Source: an uncultured Alphaproteobacteria bacterium (GTDB lineage Bacteria; Pseudomonadota; Alphaproteobacteria; Rs-D84). From it: a DNA stretch of 33,469 nucleotides. The notes under the pieces were generated by a model. It was given only the letters and a program-made list of their open reading frames with translations, made no database searches and was not told the DNA's origin. The first letter of the stretch is position 1; each line of letters begins with the position of its first letter. Shown here one piece after another: positions 3,094-25,664 of this stretch. A program made the position numbers and the translations under genes. The DNA is taken from assembly GCA_947053455.1 (NCBI GenBank), contig CAMRSV010000009.1:1-33469 (forward strand). The letters run 5' to 3'.

Positions 3094-4092
3094 CTATGCC
3101 AAACTTTCGGTTAATAATTGATTCATGTTTTCGCGAAAATCTTCTTTGTTTGACGCCCAAACCAATTGACGCATAAAAAATTTATTCACGTCATCCATGG
3201 TCAGATTTGGTATACCTGCGCCACGCGCAACACGACGCCATGCACAACGCGGATCAATTAGATGATTTCCCCCACGGCCCGGAAAAACCCAGCGCCCGTT
3301 TTGTGGCAAATCCTGCAGCAAGACGACCGCCATATCCGACAACGGACGTTCATCCCACGTGTAATGATTAAAATCCAAATCACGCCACTGCATTGAAAAT
3401 ATTTTAGACCGCGGCGCAAATCCGTATATCAACATCAAAAATGCCCCGCGTATCGTTGGTGATGATTCATGCTCAATTGCGCGCACTAGGCGCTGCAACC
3501 CGGCGCGCGTCAATGGACGCACACGATGCTTTGGCGTTATGTGCCGCACGCCATCAAGCGGGCTATTGGTGATATATCCCTGTTCCGCGGCATAATTAAA
3601 AATACTGCGTAACAGTTCCTGCATTCGGGCGGCGATTGTCTTGCCGGAAATATTTTCAATAATGTTTTTTACGTCATCAGTTGATATCTCTGTAATATTC
3701 TTATCAAACAATGGCGCCAGATGACGATCAATCGCACGTGCCAATTTCTTACGGGACATCTCACCCCGACGAACACGGTGGGTCATATATGCGTTTACTA
3801 TTTTTTTAAACGCGGTTTTATTGCGACGCGTTTTCGGTGCCTTCATAACATTTGCTAGAACCGTTGGCACGGCGGTGCGCGCCGTCTCTATTTCCATGTC
3901 TGGATAATTTCCGATAATAATGCGACGGTCACGACCACGCACACGCTTGCGTACAAAGAATGTTTTAATTCCGCGACTGGTTACATACATGCGCAGTCTG
4001 GGTTCCGCTATATCCTGGACAACATCAAATCCGGAACTTGGGGCCGGCAAGTTGTCCAAAATATACGGATTAAAATAAAACTGATGCGCCAA
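3094..4092 (-). CDS. Tyrosine recombinase-like protein without catalytic residues
   Basis: The first 75 residues resemble the arm-binding domain of P4-type integrases (SRGIKTFFVRKRVRGRDRR, then IIIGNYPDMEIETAR). A SAM-like core-binding domain follows (about 95-190), then a recognisable part of the catalytic domain (LIYGFAPRSKIFSMQW; NGRWVFPGRGG; AWRRVARGAGIPNLT). The catalytic set is broken. By my alignment the first Arg (TGxR) falls on Pro, the HxxR box reads DDVN, and the protein stops before the LGH box and nucleophilic Tyr. It has 332 residues against roughly 400 in active relatives. It lies last in an apparent rbfA-lepA operon and is otherwise intact. It may be a domesticated DNA-binding protein or a decaying integrase; I cannot decide which. 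Confidence 0.75.
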   Translation of the reverse strand: MAHQFYFNPYILDNLPAPSSGFDVVQDIAEPRLRMYVTSRGIKTFFVRKRVRGRDRRIIIGNYPDMEIETARTAVPTVLANVMKAPKTRRNKTAFKKIVNAYMTHRVRRGEMSRKKLARAIDRHLAPLFDKNITEISTDDVKNIIENISGKTIAARMQELLRSIFNYAAEQGYITNSPLDGVRHITPKHRVRPLTRAGLQRLVRAIEHESSPTIRGAFLMLIYGFAPRSKIFSMQWRDLDFNHYTWDERPLSDMAVVLLQDLPQNGRWVFPGRGGNHLIDPRCAWRRVARGAGIPNLTMDDVNKFFMRQLVWASNKEDFRENMNQLLTESLA

Positions 4093-8265: not shown

Positions 8266-8733
8266 TTATTCAACCCATATTGTCGCAACGCCCGTCGGAC
8301 TAGTTGGTGAGCCGACTGGAATTTTTACATAATCCATTGTTGCGGTTATTGTGCCATTATTATTGGTCAAAGATGTCATCACCTTGCCCGCAGTGGCGCT
8401 GGCACCAGATACACTAATATTATTAACAGCAGTGGTTGCAGCGGAATTTGCAATCGCAGACGATGTTTTCATGGACGGATATTTGTCTTCCGATTGCAAA
8501 TTAGCAGCCATATCGGCACTTTTCACCTTGTTTGAAATCAGTTCACGGGTATTCAATTGCGTCGTGGTAACAAAATTACTGTCATTTTGTAAATCACTGG
8601 TTTTTGTGGGTATGACCAATCTGCTGACAATCTTGTCCACATAATCAGCGGATGCAATTTCTGCATGTGCCCCCGCCACGGTGCCCATAACCGCAATTAT
8701 TGAAATTGAAAAAATCTTTGCTATCTTTTTCAT
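8266..8733 (-). CDS. Secreted IASK-x-YVD family protein, short member
   Basis: This 155-residue protein starts with a signal peptide ending in GTVAGAHA, followed by EIASADYVDKIV, the module shared with the next two genes upstream. The body is Ser/Thr/Asn/Ala-rich and predicted to be fibrous (VTTTQLNTRELISNK, then KTSSAIANSAATTAVNN). It ends in GVATIWVE, the Trp-containing tail pattern of its paralogues. Y-V-D modules of this kind also occur in phage tail fibres. The ATG giving MKKIAKI was chosen to fit the signal peptide; a TTG four codons earlier is possible. It is the last gene of the operon. Role is unknown; an exported or surface fibre is inferred. Confidence 0.7.
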   Translation of the reverse strand: MKKIAKIFSISIIAVMGTVAGAHAEIASADYVDKIVSRLVIPTKTSDLQNDSNFVTTTQLNTRELISNKVKSADMAANLQSEDKYPSMKTSSAIANSAATTAVNNISVSGASATAGKVMTSLTNNNGTITATMDYVKIPVGSPTSPTGVATIWVE

Positions 8734-8795
8734 AACCAACACCAACTTTTTATTCTATTTTTTCATTCCGTCTGCATTTTATCTCGCATGTATGA

Positions 8796-8821
8796 GGCAT
8801 ATTAATCAATTCCAATATGCC
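8796..8821. repeat. 8-bp inverted repeat between two operon genes
   Basis: GGCATATT and AATATGCC with a 10-base spacer lie in the 105-base gap between the last two IASK genes. It could be an mRNA-stabilising or processing hairpin. There is no T-run. Confidence 0.35.
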
Positions 8822-8838
8822 CCCGCAATCAAACATAA

Positions 8839-9687
8839 TTATTCCGCATCACCACGCGCGATAACTTCCCATGCATAGGTAGTGCCACCAGCAAATGTCA
8901 AAACACATTTGTTTGCCGGATTTGTGCATTCACCTGCAGGCTTTGGAATCGCCGCATTGGCGGTTGTTTGTGCGTTGATAGCCGCCGCCTGTGCGGCGTT
9001 TGCCGTTGTCTGGGCGGTTTGTGCTGCATTTTGTGCCGCAGCGGCATCTGTCACCCCTTGGTTTGCGATTTCCAATGTGGCCGCCAAACCAGTTGCTTCA
9101 TCTGTAACAGTTGTGTTTAACGCATTAAACTGGGCGGTCGTCGCATATTTTCCGTTTGCCACGGTTTCAGTCAACATGCCATTGGTTGCGGTCGCAATTT
9201 GATTCGCAACACTGCCAACAACCTGGGCACCACCATTCAATGTGCCAAGCGCGGCTTTATTTGATGCCACATCCGTCTTCAAGGTGCCAACATCACCAGC
9301 AATTGTTTCAACTTGACCGATTGCGGCAGTCTGCGCATCCGTCAATTTGTCCTGTTTTCCATCCACTCTGGTTGATAAATCAGTCACTGATTGCACTGTA
9401 GCTTTTGTTCCCAATTGCTGGTCAACATATGTCTTGTCCGCTTTGGAATTTATCGCCTGAACCAGCGCATTGTCTTCTTCTTTAAGAACTTCTGTGATTT
9501 GGTTATTAATTGTATTGCCAATATTGGTCTTGAACTCATTAACAGAACTTTGAACTTCTTGAACCTGGTTTGAAACACCGTCTACTCTACCGTCAACATA
9601 GCCCTTGGATGCGATTTCCGCATTGGCCGATGTCGCCGCAACAAACATCATGATTGCTGCAAAAATTCCAGCGGTTAAATTTTTCAT
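8839..9687 (-). CDS. Secreted IASK-x-YVD family protein with Ala-rich coiled coil
   Basis: The 282-residue protein has a signal peptide (AAIMMFVAATSANA) then EIASKGYVDGRVDGV. A second module, SKADKTYVDQQL, and DLSTRVDGKQDKL follow, the heptad pattern of trimeric tail fibres. Residues about 200-245 are an Ala/Gln/Thr repeat (AAQNAAQTAQTTANAAQ, AAAINAQTTANAA) suited to a coiled coil. The end is a small compact domain with two Cys (GECTNPANKCVLTF, then TTYAWEVI) like that of the next paralogue. The layout suggests a stalk with a C-terminal head, exported across the inner membrane. No anchor motif is obvious. Confidence 0.75.
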   Translation of the reverse strand: MKNLTAGIFAAIMMFVAATSANAEIASKGYVDGRVDGVSNQVQEVQSSVNEFKTNIGNTINNQITEVLKEEDNALVQAINSKADKTYVDQQLGTKATVQSVTDLSTRVDGKQDKLTDAQTAAIGQVETIAGDVGTLKTDVASNKAALGTLNGGAQVVGSVANQIATATNGMLTETVANGKYATTAQFNALNTTVTDEATGLAATLEIANQGVTDAAAAQNAAQTAQTTANAAQAAAINAQTTANAAIPKPAGECTNPANKCVLTFAGGTTYAWEVIARGDAE

Positions 9688-9724
9688 CGTTCAGTCCTTA
9701 TGTTTTAATATTTAATTTTAATTA

Positions 9725-10402
9725 TTATTCGGCTGTGTCTTTGGTTATCGGCATCCACATTAACCCCGTACCCGCAGTGTTTACTGTTAAAACACAACGA
9801 CCCGATTCCGCAACACAGTCATCATCCGGTTTGGGAATGGTATTATCAAATTTCGCAGTATTAGATGAAATTTGTGCCACCAATGCAGATGTAATACCGG
9901 AATCAACCGCCGCCTGCTGATTTTCATCCAGTTTGGTCTGGGTTCCCTGCAAGGCTGTTTCCACCGCAGAAAGTTTTGTGTTTATTTCCACGAAATCGGT
10001 ATCTGCGGGAATTGTGTCCTTTAATTCATTAATCGCACCGACAATCGTTTGTGCGACCGTCCCCAGGTTTCCTTCACCAATTTTGTTGTTTATCGTGTCA
10101 ATACTTTGTTCATTGCCATCAACCCGTAATTCCAACGCATCAAGATCATCAGAATCCGCCTTGCCTGCCATGGCTGCATTAATCGCACCACCAGTGGTAT
10201 TTAACGACGTTTGTATATTCTGATTAACAACCGTACCCAAATCATTTGTCATGGTATAATCAGACAATCTTGTATCAACTACACCCTCAACATGTTTGTC
10301 GACATAATCCTTGCTGGCGATTTGAATTGCCGCATCAGCAGCCCCACCACCAACAGACAACAAAATTGCCGCCATTAAACCGGAAAACGCAATATTTTTC
10401 AT
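9725..10402 (-). CDS. Secreted IASK-x-YVD family protein
   Basis: This 225-residue paralogue has a signal peptide (MKNIAFSGLMAAILLSVGGG onward, cleaved near ADAA), then IQIASKDYVDKHVEGV. The middle is a predicted coiled coil (DALELRVDGNEQSIDTINNK). The last 40 residues match the preceding gene's head: IPKPDDDCVAESGRCVLTV, then a Trp and TKDTAE. The two Cys are conserved and could form a disulphide outside the cytoplasm. AAGGAAATAT precedes the start. It lies 37 bases upstream of the next family gene, so co-transcription is very likely. Confidence 0.75.
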   Translation of the reverse strand: MKNIAFSGLMAAILLSVGGGAADAAIQIASKDYVDKHVEGVVDTRLSDYTMTNDLGTVVNQNIQTSLNTTGGAINAAMAGKADSDDLDALELRVDGNEQSIDTINNKIGEGNLGTVAQTIVGAINELKDTIPADTDFVEINTKLSAVETALQGTQTKLDENQQAAVDSGITSALVAQISSNTAKFDNTIPKPDDDCVAESGRCVLTVNTAGTGLMWMPITKDTAE

Positions 10403-21915: not shown

Positions 21916-21950
21916 AAAAACACCGCCCGGTTGAGCGGTGTTTTTATTTT
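21916..21950. terminator. Bidirectional terminator
   Basis: AAAAACACCGC pairs with GCGGTGTTTTT across an 8-base loop. It overlaps the last codons of the XRE regulator gene and serves both converging genes. Confidence 0.9.
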
Positions 21951-22294
21951 GTGATTAGCCGGTGCGATATTCTTAACAGAATATTTTTATCATCATCGGT
22001 CATGCAACACAACAGACCAATCATTTCACGTGTTTTTTTATCGTATATTTCCGATGTTTTTTCAACCTCTCCTAACAATGCGACAATGGAAATTCCCATC
22101 GCCTTTGCAATATAATACAGCCGCGATGCGGATATGCGATTAGATGCCGCTTCATACTTTTGCACCTGTTGAAATGTGACACCCAGATTTTGTGCCAACT
22201 CCTTTTGCGACATACCCAATTTTCGCCGCCAATTAACAATCATTTGCCCGATTAAAATATCAACCGAATCCGGTTTGAATGGTCGCCCCGACAT
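21944..22294 (-). CDS. XRE-family transcriptional regulator
   Basis: This 116-residue protein has an N-terminal Cro/CI-type helix-turn-helix: IGQMIVNWRRKLGMSQKEL, AQNLGVTFQQVQKYEAASNR, then ISASRLYYIAKAMGIS. The QKYE-x-x-x-NR-I-S form is common in short Alphaproteobacterial XRE regulators of 110-140 residues. The C-terminal part (about 75-116) is helical and unassigned. I chose the ATG giving MSGRPFKPDS; a frame extended by 24 residues has an implausible start. It is the first protein gene downstream of four tandem structured RNA genes on the same strand. Its targets are unknown. Confidence 0.85.
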   Translation of the reverse strand: MSGRPFKPDSVDILIGQMIVNWRRKLGMSQKELAQNLGVTFQQVQKYEAASNRISASRLYYIAKAMGISIVALLGEVEKTSEIYDKKTREMIGLLCCMTDDDKNILLRISHRLITK

Positions 22295-22427
22295 GTCCGC
22301 CCCCACAAATTGGTGATGGCATTGCACGCGCCCACAAAGGAGGGTTAAGAACGCAACCACCACCACACATTAAACGAAATTTGCAGGCGCCGCCCATATA
22401 TCATGAGCACCATATGGCCGACCCCGC

Positions 22428-22618
22428 AAAAAATGAACCACCGGAAATAAATCAAGTGGTTGGAGGTTCACAACAATACTCAAACTTATTGCCCGCTTAT
22501 TCATATATATCGCGGCCCCCAACCATTGTTTTAGTTGGAGCATTTAACGCCTGCACAGGGCGATTTGAGCTTGAGGTTGTGATGCCTCGTTATTTGCAAC
22601 GGATAAATATGCCGCTTT
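22428..22618 (-). ncRNA. Structured RNA copy A
   Basis: Promoter-like TATAAT lies at 22630-22625, with TGGAAA 17 bases upstream. In RNA order: a 5' hairpin (GCCG/ACGG arms); GTTGTGA-complement segment Y' (22582-22576); hairpin P4 (CGCC/GGCG); segment 1 CCAAC (22538-22534); segment 2 GGTTGG (22524-22519); a hairpin with CCGC/GCGG arms and loop containing GAATAA; segment Y (22474-22468), 7 bp perfect with Y'; segment 3 CCAACC (22463-22458); terminator AACCAC/GTGGTT followed by CATTTTTT. Segment 2 can pair with 1 or 3. Copy D has a nearly identical core. No protein frame is convincing here. Confidence 0.7.
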
Positions 22619-22675
22619 TTTTATATTATATAAAGAATTTATTACAATTTCCATGAAATTATATAATCCAATATA

Positions 22676-22853
22676 TAAAAACCGCCATATTGTAGGCGGG
22701 ATTGGAGCTAGTAAAAGCGTTACGGTAAGCTTGAGCCTTATTCGACATATTCGGCTCCATCCAATCCCTAATAGAGATTGGCACAGGTACGCCCTTGTGC
22801 AGGCGACCGTAACGAAAGAGTTTACTAGACTCCGCAACAGGTTTCCCGTTACA
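22676..22853 (-). ncRNA. Structured RNA copy B
   Basis: Promoter TTGCAA-17-TACACT (22888-22860). The RNA starts with hairpin AACGGG/CCTGTT. Y' (22833-22806) pairs with Y (22726-22704) over two helices of 9 and 8 bp plus GGAG/CTCC, the longest version in the family. P4 is GCACA/TGTGC (22800-22781). Segment 1 is CCAATC (22781-22776), segment 2 GGATTGGA (22767-22760), segment 3 TCCAATCC (22706-22699). The inner hairpin has GAGCC/GGCTC arms and a GAATAA-containing loop. The terminator is CCGCC/GGCGG with five T. Confidence 0.72.
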
Positions 22854-22898
22854 GTTATAAGTGTATTCTATTTCAGAATAATTTGCAAATTATTTCTT

Positions 22899-23083
22899 GC
22901 ATAAAGTCATAACAAAAATGGCTGGGAGTTCAAAACAATACAAAAGTAAATTGCCCGCTTATTCATATATATCGCGGCCCCCAGCCATAAAAGACTGGAT
23001 TTCACGCCCGAACGCGGGCAACTTTGGTTTTTATTGAGGTTATCAAGCCCCATTTTATTTGCGACGGATTTAACCGACCATGT
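22899..23083 (-). ncRNA. Structured RNA copy D
   Basis: Promoter-like TATAAT at 23095-23090, with TGGAAA 16 bases upstream as in copy A. Core positions 22951-22988 match copy A almost base for base. The main difference is a change in segment 2 (GGCTGG for GGTTGG) matched by changes in segment 3 (CCAGCC) and segment 1 (CCAGT). P4 is GCCCG/CGGGC. Y pairing is weaker here (CAATA with TATTG plus an A/T run). The terminator AGCCAT/ATGACT has a poor T-run, so termination may be inefficient. Confidence 0.65.
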
Positions 23084-23140
23084 GTCCCCATTATATCAGC
23101 GCGCCGCAAAATTTCCATAAAAATCCGCCGCGCCACCAAT

Positions 23141-23315
23141 ATAAAAAACCTATCATAAGAACAGATAGGTTGGAGGTGATATCTTGCAGGTTTATTTGCT
23201 CGGCGACCTATTCAATATATTCAGTCGCCCTCCAACCTCTCGGTTGGATTTTTACGTCTAAAACGACGATAAACCCGCGGAGACATCACTTCCGCACGAC
23301 GGAACACCCGTCACG
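23141..23315 (-). ncRNA. Structured RNA copy C
   Basis: A strong promoter, TTGCAA-17-TATAAT, lies at 23350-23322. The RNA begins with hairpin GACGG/CCGTC. Y' GGAAGTGAT pairs with Y ATCACCTCC over 9 bp with one wobble. P4 is CGTC/GACG. Segment 1 is CCAACC (23247-23242), separated by only four bases from segment 2 GGTTGGAGG (23237-23229), which is fully complementary over 9 bp to segment 3 CCTCCAACC (23176-23168). The inner hairpin has GGCGAC/GTCGCC arms. The terminator AACCTATC/GATAGGTT is an 8-bp stem with six T, and its 5' arm shares AACC with segment 3. Confidence 0.75.
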
Positions 23316-23321
23316 GTTGAA

Positions 23322-23350
23322 ATTATACCTAAAAAATATACCAATTGCAA
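23322..23350 (-). promoter_or_regulatory. Promoter of RNA copy C
   Basis: On the minus strand TTGCAA, 17 bases, TATAAT, predicting a start near 23315 exactly at the first hairpin of the RNA. This is the best promoter in the array. The same -35 with 17-base spacing recurs before copy B. Confidence 0.65.
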
Positions 23351-23368
23351 ATATTTTATTATGGAAAT

Positions 23369-23500
23369 TAAAACGGGTTGCAATGCACCCCGTAAAAATG
23401 AATTAGATGCAACTTGGCAAAAATTATTAGAATGATGTAGATGCGGGCGAAAAATTTGCGTAGTGTATTAGACATACATGAGCAAACTTTTCACCCGCAG
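23369..23500 (-). ncRNA. Candidate sRNA or structured 3' UTR of efp
   Basis: Just after the efp stop the minus strand can form a 17-bp hairpin (GCGGGTGAAAAGTTTGC with GCAAATTTTTCGCCCGC) that is fully paired using two G-U wobbles. The same arms on the plus strand have C-A mismatches, so the minus strand is the functional one. An AT-rich linker follows, then a second hairpin, ACGGG-x-TGCA with TGCA-x-CCCGT, ending in TTTAATTT. Hairpin, linker and terminator is the usual sRNA layout. TATAAT lies at the efp stop, so it could be made independently or cut from efp mRNA. Confidence 0.45.
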
Positions 23501-23524
23501 ATATATTATTATTATAATTTTTTA

Positions 23525-24094
23525 TTATTTCGCGCGTTCAACGTATTCCAGCGTTTCCGTATTCACGACGATTTTCTCGCCTGCCTCTACAAATAACGGA
23601 ACTTGAACGCGAATGCCGTTGTCAAGAATCGCCGGTTTGCCGCCGCTGGATGACGCGGTTTGCCCCTTTAGGGCGGGTTCGGTTTCTTCGACCGTTGCAA
23701 TTACCGTTTTCGGCAATGTGATAGATACCGGGTGCCCTTCGACAAAATTCGCCTTGACCCCCATTTCCGGCGCCAAGAATTTCATCATATCGCCCAGGGA
23801 ATCAACCGGCATTGTGAACTGTTCATAATCCGACAGGTTCATAAAGAACGCATCCGTTCCGTCGGAATACAAATACTGACACTCAAAATCTTCGACCATC
23901 AGTTTTTCAACCTTGTCCTCCGCGCGCCAACGGTCGCCACCCTTGTTACCGGTGTCAATATCACGCAAATCGGCCTGAACAAACGCACCGCCCTTGCCAG
24001 GTTTAACTTTGGTTATTGATGTGACGGAATACCGACGTCCGTTATGGGAAATAACCCAACCGACACGCATGTCATTTGCAATGTATGATGCCAT
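23525..24094 (-). CDS. efp: Elongation factor P
   Basis: EF-P binds the ribosomal E site and rescues translation at polyproline stretches. The 189-residue protein has the three expected beta-barrel domains. The tip loop reads KPGKGGAF with Lys34, the residue modified in EF-Ps that use lysylation-type enzymes; no modification enzyme is in the window. The C-terminal domain has the GxVxVPLFVxxGExIxVxTxxxxYxxR pattern (VPLFVEAGEKIVVNTETLEY). It lies upstream of the structured RNA array on the same strand and 60 bases downstream of ppa, so ppa and efp may be co-transcribed. Confidence 0.97.
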   Translation of the reverse strand: MASYIANDMRVGWVISHNGRRYSVTSITKVKPGKGGAFVQADLRDIDTGNKGGDRWRAEDKVEKLMVEDFECQYLYSDGTDAFFMNLSDYEQFTMPVDSLGDMMKFLAPEMGVKANFVEGHPVSITLPKTVIATVEETEPALKGQTASSSGGKPAILDNGIRVQVPLFVEAGEKIVVNTETLEYVERAK

Positions 24095-24154
24095 TGTAAT
24101 ACCTCTTTATTTTACCGTTTTATTATACGCAGCCCCGTCCCCCGCGCAAGTGAT

Positions 24155-24697
24155 TTATTTCGCCTCGCGCTTGTGATTCCAATAACGGTCAATGCTGTCC
24201 ATAATCAACTTATCCGCCGTTTCCCGGTCGGCCCAACCCAAAACTTTGGACCAAGCGTTCGGCTGCAAATCCTTATAGTGCTGAAAAAAGTATTCGATTT
24301 TCGAACGCAAAATTTGCGGCAATTGCTCCAACTGTTCGGTGGTGGTGTAATACGGATCGATTTTATCACGCGGCACGCAGATGATTTTTTCGTCACCGCC
24401 GGCTTGATCTTCCATTAAAAGCGCACCAATCGGGCGAACCTCAATCAAAACACCAGGACGCAGCGGCGCATTACAAACCACAACACAGTCCAGCGGATCG
24501 CCGTCATCGCCCAATGTCCCCGGGAAATAACCATAGTTCGCCGGATATGCCATCGGCGCGTGTAGAATCCGGTCAACCTTTAACATGCCGGTTTCTTTGT
24601 TAATTTCATATTTTACATAGCCGTTTTCCGGAACTTCAATAATAGCATTCATTTTTTTGGGCGGCATTTTGCCCGGTACAATTTCTTCGATTGTCAT
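24155..24697 (-). CDS. ppa: Inorganic pyrophosphatase
   Basis: Family I soluble pyrophosphatase hydrolyses pyrophosphate from biosynthesis to two phosphates in the cytoplasm. The 180-residue length is normal. Key blocks are VDRILHAPMAYPANYGYFPG, the metal-binding DGDPLD at 65-70, and IICVPRDKIDP. The C-terminal KDLQPNAWSKVLGW is typical of proteobacterial enzymes. AAAGGAT lies upstream. It precedes efp on the same strand. Confidence 0.97.
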   Translation of the reverse strand: MTIEEIVPGKMPPKKMNAIIEVPENGYVKYEINKETGMLKVDRILHAPMAYPANYGYFPGTLGDDGDPLDCVVVCNAPLRPGVLIEVRPIGALLMEDQAGGDEKIICVPRDKIDPYYTTTEQLEQLPQILRSKIEYFFQHYKDLQPNAWSKVLGWADRETADKLIMDSIDRYWNHKREAK

Positions 24698-24753
24698 AAA
24701 TATCTATCCTTTGTTTGTGGCGGATATATTATCATAAAAATCAGATATTGCAA

Positions 24754-25359
24754 TCAATTTGAACTGTAATGGCAATTTGAGGTAAATTCATACGTTCCCG
24801 ACTCATCCGACATTTCTGTCCCGGTCGGCAAATAACAATCAGATATCTTGGTGCCATACGCATCGGTTTTCCCACCATCCGGGCATGCCTTGCATGACGC
24901 GTCGCCGGTTGCGGTATCACATTCATCCGCATAGTAAAATGTCCCATACCTTCCGCAACCACATTCATAGGTGTAAACCGATGTACAACTGCCATCAATT
25001 TTCTTTTTTGTACAACTTGTTTTGCGCCGATAATTGATACTAAAAGATCCATAACCCATATTTTCCCATTCTTTATCCCCATCAGTTAAATCACATTTCA
25101 TGGAAGAACATAAGTCCACCTTATAACAAGACGAGCATTCTGTAATACATTTTGATTGCGATGATGCGCTGCAACTATCGCAACATACATAATTACTGAC
25201 ACTATAACAAGAAGCACATTCTGTCGCACATTTTGATTGCGACGGAGCCCAACAACTGTCACAGCACAAATATGTTGTTATTTCAGGTGTCGTCGAAATT
25301 GCCCCCGGCGCTGCCTGTGACAATATCGCCAAGGCAAAAAGTATCAAAATTAAACGCAT
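24754..25359 (-). CDS. Secreted Cys-rich protein with internal repeat
   Basis: The 201-residue protein has a signal peptide (LILFALAILSQAAPGA) and more than 20 Cys. Two repeats of about 25 residues stand near the start, each with CCDSC, six residues, SKC, x-TEC, x-SCY. The rest holds spaced Cys pairs and a C-terminal motif, CKACPDGGKTDAYGTKISDC, then LPTGT and TYEFTSNCHY. Such spacing implies many disulphides in the periplasm or outside the cell. I know no function. The start is preceded by AAGGGGG. Structured RNA copy E ends about 30 bases upstream on the same strand, so this gene may be governed by that RNA in cis. Confidence 0.75.
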   Translation of the reverse strand: MRLILILFALAILSQAAPGAISTTPEITTYLCCDSCWAPSQSKCATECASCYSVSNYVCCDSCSASSQSKCITECSSCYKVDLCSSMKCDLTDGDKEWENMGYGSFSINYRRKTSCTKKKIDGSCTSVYTYECGCGRYGTFYYADECDTATGDASCKACPDGGKTDAYGTKISDCYLPTGTEMSDESGTYEFTSNCHYSSN

Positions 25360-25387
25360 ACTAAAATCCCCCTTGTTTCATTCAAAA

Positions 25388-25591
25388 CAAAAACCACCGA
25401 ATACTTTCAGTGGCCAGGAGGTTGACAACTATCTTGCGAGTAGCACGGTTTATTTGTTATTAGACCGTCCTCCTGACCCTTTGATGAATCAGGAGAATAT
25501 TTATCGTCACAATAAAAACGGCGCAATGCGCCAAGTATATTCCGACGCACAAGAGAGGTTGTCATGCCCCATCACGGCAACCCGCCGTGAC
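25388..25591 (-). ncRNA. Structured RNA copy E, leader of the Cys-rich gene
   Basis: Promoter TTTACA-18-TATAAT (25627-25598) points to a start at the first hairpin (TCACGGC/GCCGTGA, 7 bp). Y' TGACAAC-GTTGTCA pairing is perfect (25564-25558 with 25429-25423), extended by CTTG/CAAG. Compared with copy A one base pair is swapped on both sides. P4 is GGCGC/GCGCC. Segment 1 CTCCTGA (25495-25489), segment 2 GGTCAGGAGG (25478-25469), segment 3 CCTCCTGGCC (25421-25412). The terminator is CCAC-x-GAA/TTC-x-GTGG with a U-G wobble and TTTTTGTTTT. The Cys-rich gene follows at once. Confidence 0.75.
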
Positions 25592-25597
25592 ATTTTT

Positions 25598-25627
25598 ATT
25601 ATAGGAAATTAACATTCACATTGTAAA
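25598..25627 (-). promoter_or_regulatory. Promoter of RNA copy E
   Basis: On the minus strand TTTACA, 18 bases, TATAAT. The predicted start falls on the first base of the 5' hairpin. Confidence 0.55.
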
Positions 25628-25635
25628 GGCAAAAA

Positions 25636-25664
25636 TAAAAAACCGCCACATGGGCGGTTTTTAT
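25636..25664. terminator. Terminator of dnaN
   Basis: A-run, AACCGCC, ACATG loop, GGCGGTT, T-run; symmetric, following dnaN on the minus strand and insulating it from the copy E promoter. Confidence 0.88.

What the first reader, a model, noticed from the sequence alone, without database searches (positions are those of the whole stretch)
22428..25591. Five-copy family of structured minus-strand RNAs, apparently undescribed
Seen directly: five segments (22428-22618, 22676-22853, 22899-23083, 23141-23315, 25388-25591) share one architecture on the minus strand. The order is promoter-like sequence, 5' hairpin, segment Y', hairpin P4, segments 1 and 2, an inner hairpin whose AU-rich loop carries GAATAA or a close variant, segment Y, segment 3 and a terminator hairpin. 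Primary sequence differs greatly between most copies, yet helices are kept. Y/Y' is TCACAAC/GTTGTGA in A, TGACAAC/GTTGTCA in E (a swapped pair), CTAGTAAA/TTTACTAG in B. P4 is a different sequence in each copy but pairs every time. Orientation is supported by terminator T-runs (weak in D), U-G wobbles and TATAAT boxes on the minus strand. I recognise no known RNA class; novelty itself is inference.
Basis: partly seen in the sequence, partly recalled or inferred. Interest (0 to 1): 0.93.

Follow-up and report, generated by a model that had tools for sequence, protein, structure and literature searches.

The report
C4-like attenuator leader RNA, fifty copies
A small-genome, likely gut-dwelling bacterium carries 52 copies of one intricately paired RNA-like element, most of the free-standing ones right in front of a gene; it is likely a remote relative of a phage antisense RNA and is predicted to stop or allow reading of that gene by swapping base-pairing partners.

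Summary
The five segments are real and belong to one structured minus-strand element family. In 113 copies tested, the 8-nt loop of hairpin P2 pairs 6/6 with segment Y in 110 (4.0% between copies with different loops); a second kissing pair of 6 nt or more is present in 98 (2.4% cross). The own 915-kb genome holds 52 copies; 129 of 142 sampled genomes of the order have matches. Of 40 copies not followed by another copy, 32 lie within 45 nt of a start codon (random positions 5.6%).

It is not without relatives. Its layout is that of phage P1's c4 leader and of loci of Rfam sRNA-Xcc1, and the same genome has sRNA-Xcc1-type places with similar flanks. Yet window copies match no Rfam family, and C4 itself is not found. 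Most copies lack C4's downstream target; a terminator overlapping segment 3 stands there. Helices 1:2, 2:3 and 3:terminator exclude each other, so I infer transcription attenuation set by the kissing pairs. Verdict: a real, large, undescribed variant of a known kind. Transcription, switching and trigger are untested.

The parts
22428..22630 (-). Copy A with its -10 box: P1 22596-22615, P2 22573-22588 (a1 22576-22582), b1 22564-22572, P4 22548-22562, segment 1 22534-22540, segment 2 22516-22524, P6 22493-22515, P7 22474-22491, a' (Y) 22468-22474, segment 3 22458-22466, terminator 22428-22461
   Evidence: 109.5 bits; -10; coordinates
22677..22859 (-). Copy B: -10-like TATAAC 22854-22859, a1 22821-22828, b1 22806-22814, P4 22790-22805, segment 2 22755-22768, P6 22734-22756, b' 22718-22726, a' 22708-22715, segment 3 22698-22707, terminator 22677-22699
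   Evidence: 31.1 bits; terminator
22900..23095 (-). Copy C, likely decayed: -10 23090-23095, P2 23036-23051, segment 2 22978-22986, P6 22955-22977, P7 22936-22953, segment 3 22920-22928; no usable terminator, a1:a' 4 of 6
   Evidence: (57.0 bits)
23143..23327 (-). Copy D: -10 23322-23327, P1 23298-23312, a1 23282-23289, b1 23269-23276, P4 23255-23268, segment 1 23242-23247, segment 2 23229-23237, P6 23203-23228, b' 23189-23195, a' 23176-23183, segment 3 23168-23176, terminator 23143-23171
   Evidence: 40.5 bits; promoter
25388..25603 (-). Copy E: -10 25598-25603, P1 25571-25591, P2 25555-25570 (a1 25558-25564), b1 25546-25554, internal terminator-like P4 25511-25533, segment 1 25487-25495, segment 2 25469-25478, P6 25445-25468, P7 with b' 25429-25443, a' 25423-25429, segment 3 25412-25421, terminator 25388-25413
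   Evidence: (107.1 bits)
25350..25372 (-). Ribosome-binding-site-like GGGGG (25368-25372) and start codon of the gene behind copy E
24754..25359 (-). Gene behind copy E: 201-aa Cys-rich protein with a hydrophobic N-terminus (exported by prediction), no Pfam family
21944..22294 (-). Gene behind copies D-C-B-A: small HTH_3 protein (Xre type), start 136 nt after copy A

Best explanation
The five segments are copies of a structured element of about 160-220 nt that occurs 52 times in this genome, is likely descended from the C4/sRNA-Xcc1 type of antisense RNA, and is predicted to act as a transcription attenuator of the gene behind it. Predicted working: each nascent leader folds its own 'address', the P2 loop (a1) and strand b1, onto the matching a' and b' in its 3' half. 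That fold keeps segment 2 tied up with segment 1, leaves segment 3 free and lets the terminator form (OFF). When a1/b1 are taken away (by a competing RNA with the same address, by processing, or by something that binds P6), segment 2 takes segment 3. This is the C4-like fold; it removes the base of the terminator and would let the polymerase through (ON). Shown: the sequence anatomy, covariation, copy number, gene context and bistability in energy calculations. Inferred: transcription, the switch, its trigger, RNase P processing and common descent with C4.
For: Kissing pair a1:a' 6/6 in 110 of 113 against 4.0% cross; b1:b' run of 6 or more in 98 of 113 against 2.4%. 52 copies. 32 of 40 copies not followed by another copy within 45 nt of a start codon against 105 of 1,880 random positions. 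Terminator takes 2 or more bases of segment 3 in 107 of 113; mean energy -10.3, -3.5 kcal/mol with segment 3 blocked. Folds: 2:3 in 3 of 113 whole leaders, 108 of 113 3' parts, 47 when a1+b1 are blocked, 101 when segment 1 is blocked too. Relatedness: RF02221 over all 87 positions in L073; RF02221 place over cut-off in the own genome with like flanks; 21 of 21 examined sRNA-Xcc1 loci have an upstream complement of 7 nt or more, 16 a downstream one; P1 a1/b1/C4/a2/b2 annotation and the 4-bp stem with 8-nt loop in c4-a1b1. Precedent for a cis lock opened by the short leader RNA in trans: IsrK (PMC4825925, passages).
Against: No transcript or read-through was measured. R1 has no significant match at the sRNA-Xcc1 places examined or in P1; RF01695 finds nothing in the genome; window copies do not match RF02221 up to E 5; the RF02221 match on an own R1 copy is weak (30.9 bits, E 0.14). 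C4's defining downstream target is absent from most copies. When 2:3 forms in the 3' part, 86 of 113 folds still count 5 or more paired positions in the terminator region, so disruption is partial. Removing a1+b1 flips only 47 of 113 folds. 1:2 was measured over 8 model columns, so '2:3 longer' is partly a cap effect (59 copies at the cap). Kissing pairs were modelled as nested helices, not as pseudoknots. Copy C is decayed.
Confidence: 0.58

Rival explanations
1. A metabolite or ion riboswitch: a small molecule binds the conserved AU-rich P6 loop within the kissing-loop fold and sets terminator against antiterminator; the likeness to C4 is descent or convergence without antisense action.
For: Leader position, terminator and mutually exclusive helices; P6 loop motif shared among copies with otherwise different sequence.
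Against: Regulated proteins share no pathway; P6 differs in relatives of other families (by eye); the most selective feature is a copy-specific address, which a common ligand does not need. c-di-GMP is unlikely, as no GGDEF was found.
Confidence: 0.15
2. Free small RNAs acting in trans: each copy is a transcript with its own promoter and terminator that pairs with distant mRNAs through a' and b' (published view of sRNA-Xcc1), and the nearness to genes is secondary.
For: Promoter-like sites before A, C, D, E; 12 of 52 copies are followed by another copy, not a gene; sRNA-Xcc1 was cloned and RACE-mapped as an 88-nt RNA (PMC2996969, passages).
Against: 32 of 40 others sit within 45 nt of a start codon; no Hfq found in this 96%-complete genome; no a-b target pairs recognised in held stretches (weak because that scan also re-finds each RNA's own complement and covers part of the genome).
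Confidence: 0.15
3. Mobile palindromic repeats (MITE- or REP-like) that happen to carry promoter and terminator, with no regulatory role.
For: Copy number varies from 1 to 49 within the genus; tandem copies.
Against: Copies differ strongly yet keep copy-specific pairs; fixed side and distance to genes; present across the order and in 12 genomes of other families of the class.
Confidence: 0.05

Closest known systems
sRNA-Xcc1 (Rfam RF02221)
   Same: Outer helix = segment 2:3, then P6 with an AAUA internal loop, P7, Y; its loci carry upstream a1/b1 complements (21 of 21 examined); over-cut-off place in this genome; multi-copy in other bacteria (PMC12189769 and PMC8780938, passages)
   Different: Window copies do not match RF02221; 16 of 21 examined sRNA-Xcc1 loci have a downstream copy of the target, which most window-type copies lack; published as an 88-nt trans-acting sRNA
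C4 antisense RNA of phages P1/P7 (RF01695) with c4-a1b1 (RF03163)
   Same: Order promoter, hairpin, 4-bp stem with 8-nt loop (a1), b1, then an RNA whose long outer helix encloses two hairpins (the second with b') and a', then the gene
   Different: Not found by RF01695 in this genome; no a2/b2 in most copies; own terminator between RNA and gene; an extra 1:2 hairpin; host chromosome, 52 copies
isrK leader RNA (RF01394; Salmonella Gifsy-1 prophage)
   Same: P1 c4 leader matches it at 35.1 bits (below gathering 50); leader-internal terminator gives a short RNA that opens the long transcript in trans (PMC4825925, passages); copy E has an internal terminator-like hairpin
   Different: Translation control of orf45/anrP; only 5 of 51 own copies examined have the internal hairpin
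trp-type attenuators and terminator riboswitches
   Same: Mutually exclusive 1:2, 2:3 and 3:terminator helices
   Different: No leader peptide or known ligand recognised (by eye); address-specific kissing pairs

Membership tests
sRNA-Xcc1 (RF02221) | Match to the Rfam model at its gathering score (53 bits), window copies | tested here: not met
   No RF02221 match up to E 5 in window 22380-25640
sRNA-Xcc1 (RF02221) | Same, elsewhere in the genome | tested here: met
   C1:189038-189127 at 55.5 bits; three further places below cut-off, one on an R1 copy
sRNA-Xcc1 (RF02221) | Outer helix, P6 with AAUA loop, P7, Y in this order | tested here: met
   Full-length alignment of L073; same order in the window copies
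C4 antisense RNA (RF01695) | Match to the Rfam model | tested here: not met
   0 matches at E up to 1 in the own genome; P1 control 68.8 bits
C4 antisense RNA (RF01695) | a1/b1 upstream complementary to a'/b' in the RNA | tested here: met
   110 and 98 of 113; 90.4% against 13.8% with 7 nt or more in 125 copies
C4 antisense RNA (RF01695) | a2/b2 copy of the target at the ribosome-binding site of the next gene | tested here: not met
   21.6% against 10.9% cross in 125 copies; copy L135 looks like an exception (by eye)
C4 antisense RNA (RF01695) | RNase P processing of the precursor (recalled) | not testable with these tools
   Segment 2:3 helix followed by ACC or GCC in 35 of 113, ACT or GCT in 34; RNase P RNA present
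Transcription attenuator / riboswitch | Mutually exclusive terminator and antiterminator before a gene | tested here: met
   Sequence and energy level only; 86 of 113 folds keep part of the terminator when 2:3 forms
Transcription attenuator / riboswitch | Effector-dependent read-through | not testable with these tools
   Needs transcription assays

The most novel reading that the evidence does not exclude
A chromosome-wide, address-coded RNA switchboard: a phage-type antisense module was tamed and multiplied to some fifty leaders, each locked by its own kissing-loop address, so that an RNA with a matching address (a tandem sister, a short leader RNA, a released 3' fragment) opens just those exported-protein or regulator genes, in a bacterium with a strongly reduced genome.
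Probability: 0.25. Interest if true: 0.92.

Novelty: new variant of a known kind. Interest (0 to 1): 0.76.

Why it matters
If true, one RNA family controls a large share of exported-protein and regulator genes in a whole order of reduced-genome bacteria, at a density (52 in 0.9 Mb) that is high among the leader RNAs I know of (recall). It would also recast sRNA-Xcc1, published as a trans-acting sRNA under virulence control, as the 3' half of a C4-type leader, and make it testable how a translation-blocking phage RNA could become a transcription switch.

Tried and rejected
Rfam scans: no match for window copies; low-scoring matches outside the RNAs (amino-acid leaders, BSnc120) were set aside. 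Leader peptide: by eye no shared frame or start codon, so ribosome-mediated attenuation was dropped (not computed). Palindromic P6 loop as dimer site: dropped because several copies break the palindrome (by eye). c-di-GMP riboswitch: no GGDEF found. Viral origin: 0 viral contigs with the pattern, a pattern tuned to the genus, so weak evidence. Trans targets: scanned only in held stretches of the own genome; the scan re-finds each RNA's own complement and its mismatch control gave 30 hits in 60 combinations, so it is uninformative for weak targets.

Rows dropped: 16 of 129 distinct copies without a clean 8-nt P2 loop by model columns (B and D among them) are missing; 4 of 129; 9 of the 30 RF02221 loci returned were not examined; pattern loci L083 and L112 gave no model match (39 of 41 did). 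Of the 32 starts counted, two belong to reading frames cut by a contig end (14 and 28 aa) and three use GTG or TTG.
Full report
WHAT WAS CHECKED. The window is one contig of a 915-kb genome. The five segments were folded and compared with further copies of the same genome. A covariance model (R1) built from 15 copies finds 49 copies in the genome and, over a smaller search space, two more including B; one further copy (L009:255-436) was recognised by eye. That makes 52.

ANATOMY (transcript direction). A -10 box is followed by hairpin P1 and hairpin P2, a 4-bp stem with an 8-nt loop. Then come strand b1, an optional P4, hairpin P5 (segment 1 with segment 2) and hairpin P6 (often GATATATATRAATAA or GAATATATTGAATAA in the loop). 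The 3' part holds hairpin P7, segment Y, segment 3 and the terminator, usually followed by a ribosome-binding-site-like motif and a start codon. Two long-range kissing pairs join the halves: P2 loop with Y, and b1 with the P7 loop. Of 129 distinct copies (51 own, 78 from other genomes), 113 have a clean 8-nt loop by model columns. In these the first pair is 6/6 in 110, against 4.0% of 11,878 pairings between copies with different loops; the second has 6 or more consecutive Watson-Crick pairs in 98, against 2.4% of 3,356. There are 40 distinct loop cores. On the 15-sequence alignment the P2-loop:Y helix has 97.8% of cells paired, with changes on both sides in 4 of 6 pairs; the P2 stem has 100%, with such changes in all 4. 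The sequences are related, so shuffles alone are not a strict test; the cross-copy control is the stronger one.

DISTRIBUTION. All 24 genomes of the genus have matches (1 to 49 copies; 35 of 40 genomes overall at E 0.001). With stricter filters and E 1e-5, 129 of 142 in the order do, three genomes of the genus having none, and 15 of 289 in the class, 12 of them from other families (the 274 without a match serve as a specificity control). A pattern scan of named genomes gave 41 stretches, 39 with a model match, with titles such as Alphaproteobacteria or proteobacterium from sheep, goat, deer, horse and other samples. Size and hosts fit Candidatus Enterousia, order Rs-D84, described as reduced-genome bacteria that appear to be obligate symbionts or parasites (PMC12306168, passages); the name is an inference.

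CONTEXT. 12 of the 52 copies are followed by another copy. Of the other 40, 32 have a start codon with a ribosome-binding-site-like motif within 45 nt, against 105 of 1,880 random positions in the same loci. Of 34 downstream proteins, 16 have a hydrophobic N-terminal stretch by a crude score, one of them an HTH protein. Of 10 small or other proteins scanned, 6 match HTH families (3 over Pfam's cut-off), one is a glycosyltransferase 8 and 3 match nothing. Of 10 others, one is trypsin-like, one matches an ephrin-receptor-like module over cut-off, and the rest have weak matches or none. By eye, all seven class-level loci have a motif and start codon after the RNA and six of seven a terminator; L151 shows none.

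WHAT IT IS RELATED TO. The copy in order-level locus L073 aligns over all 87 positions of Rfam sRNA-Xcc1 at 39.1 bits (E 1.6e-5 over 401 bases, 0.0012 over 31 kb; gathering 53). The outer helix of sRNA-Xcc1 is segment 2:3; P6, P7 and Y follow. In the own genome RF02221 finds four places, one over the cut-off (55.5 bits) and one on an R1 copy (30.9 bits, E 0.14). By eye the three others also have a P2-like loop matching Y and b1 matching P7, and two of them a clear terminator and start codon, the third a weaker one. Of 30 RF02221 loci returned, I examined 21. All 21 have an upstream complement of 7 nt or more to the a'/b' region (cross means 5.8-6.5), 16 a downstream one (cross means 5.0-5.8). 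In L158, L162, L163 and L164 the downstream copy reads loop copy, GGAG, b1 copy, ATG. 13 of 20 have an internal terminator-like hairpin. This is the layout annotated for phage P1: a1, b1, C4 RNA, a2, b2, icd, where Rfam's c4-a1b1 shows the same 4-bp stem with an 8-nt loop. C4 is an antisense RNA needed for full repression of ant (PMC8198154, passages); RNase P processing of its precursor is recalled, not seen. sRNA-Xcc1 was mapped to 88 nt by RACE (PMC2996969, abstract and passages), lies upstream of symE in integron cassettes (PMC12444791, passages), and occurs in 7 copies in a Xylella genome (PMC12189769, passages) and 15 in an Aeromonas salmonicida genome (PMC8780938, passages). In the scan outputs RF02221 bears no clan while C4, c4-2 and c4-a1b1 share CL00128.

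AGAINST RELATEDNESS. R1 has no significant match at the sRNA-Xcc1 places or in P1 (best stray 16.6 bits, E 0.03, elsewhere in L155). RF01695 finds nothing in the genome. No window copy matches RF02221 up to E 5. I therefore do not file the window RNAs as members; I call them a variant that likely shares descent and works in a related way.

HOW IT LIKELY WORKS. Segments 1 and 3 both pair with 2. 2:3 has 8 or more pairs in 111 of 113 and is longer than 1:2 in 104, equal in 9; segment 1 was measured over 8 columns, so this is partly a cap. The terminator hairpin takes 2 or more bases of segment 3 in 107 of 113, and its mean energy goes from -10.3 to -3.5 kcal/mol when segment 3 is blocked. In minimum-energy folds of whole leaders 1:2 is present in 101, the terminator in 105 and 2:3 in 3 of 113. 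In the 3' part alone 2:3 forms in 108, though 86 still show 5 or more paired positions in the terminator region. Blocking a1 and b1 raises 2:3 to 47, blocking segment 1 alone to 40, both to 101. So the 5' part decides the state in these calculations, which treat the kissing pairs as plain helices. In the isrK-orf45-anrP transcript, mutations showed a cis lock between leader and downstream sequence and its opening by the short IsrK RNA in trans (PMC4825925, passages); the P1 c4 leader resembles isrK at 35.1 bits, below gathering. Copy E and four other own copies of 51 have an internal terminator-like hairpin that could make such a short RNA. C4's downstream target is mostly absent here (21.6% against 10.9% cross), so I infer that termination replaced the translation block. 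The trigger is unknown. No Hfq was found (genome 96% complete); RNase P RNA is present.

PRINT. Searches for Enterousia, sRNA-Xcc1, riboswitch candidates in Alphaproteobacteria, C4 antisense RNA with antirepressor and RNase P, c4-a1b1, P1 antirepressor RNA, sRNA-Xcc1 with C4, and IsrK listed no paper whose title or abstract start describes this family, or sRNA-Xcc1 as a C4-type leader. Listings were capped, most listed papers were not opened, the library lacks most subscription papers, and the 2011 sRNA-Xcc1 paper was not held.

Noticed in passing
L153-L182 (RF02221 loci): Examined sRNA-Xcc1 loci carry a C4-type leader upstream and often a target copy at the next gene's ribosome-binding site; several next genes look like phage antirepressors (KilA-N, P22 AR N; by eye). 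sRNA-Xcc1 may be misread as a stand-alone virulence sRNA.
   Followed up: partly
G000:C1:189038-189127, C5:41687-41779, C17:1339-1431 (L186, L184, L185): sRNA-Xcc1-type RNAs in the same genome, outside the window; two are followed by a clear terminator and a start codon.
   Followed up: partly
L019, L125, L132, L023: Some tandem neighbours share the same address (e.g. C8:13564 and 13775, C2:5139 and 5344, C2:58143 and 58343), others (window A-D) do not: recent duplication or deliberate cross-talk.
   Followed up: no
L147, L149, L150: In three class-level genomes the RNA lies within about 250 nt of a contig end, which may mean that it or its gene is repeated there.
   Followed up: no
window 23425-23517: Long inverted repeat just after the EF-P gene (minus strand), scored by chance as a plant microRNA shape; probably the EF-P terminator.
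   Followed up: no
window 8266-10402: Three consecutive minus-strand reading frames whose products start alike (signal-peptide-like stretch, then IAS-DYVD or IASKGYVD), a likely family of exported coiled-coil proteins (by eye).
   Followed up: no
window 3094-4092: Integrase-like protein with arm-DNA-binding and phage integrase middle domains, a trace of mobile DNA.
   Followed up: no
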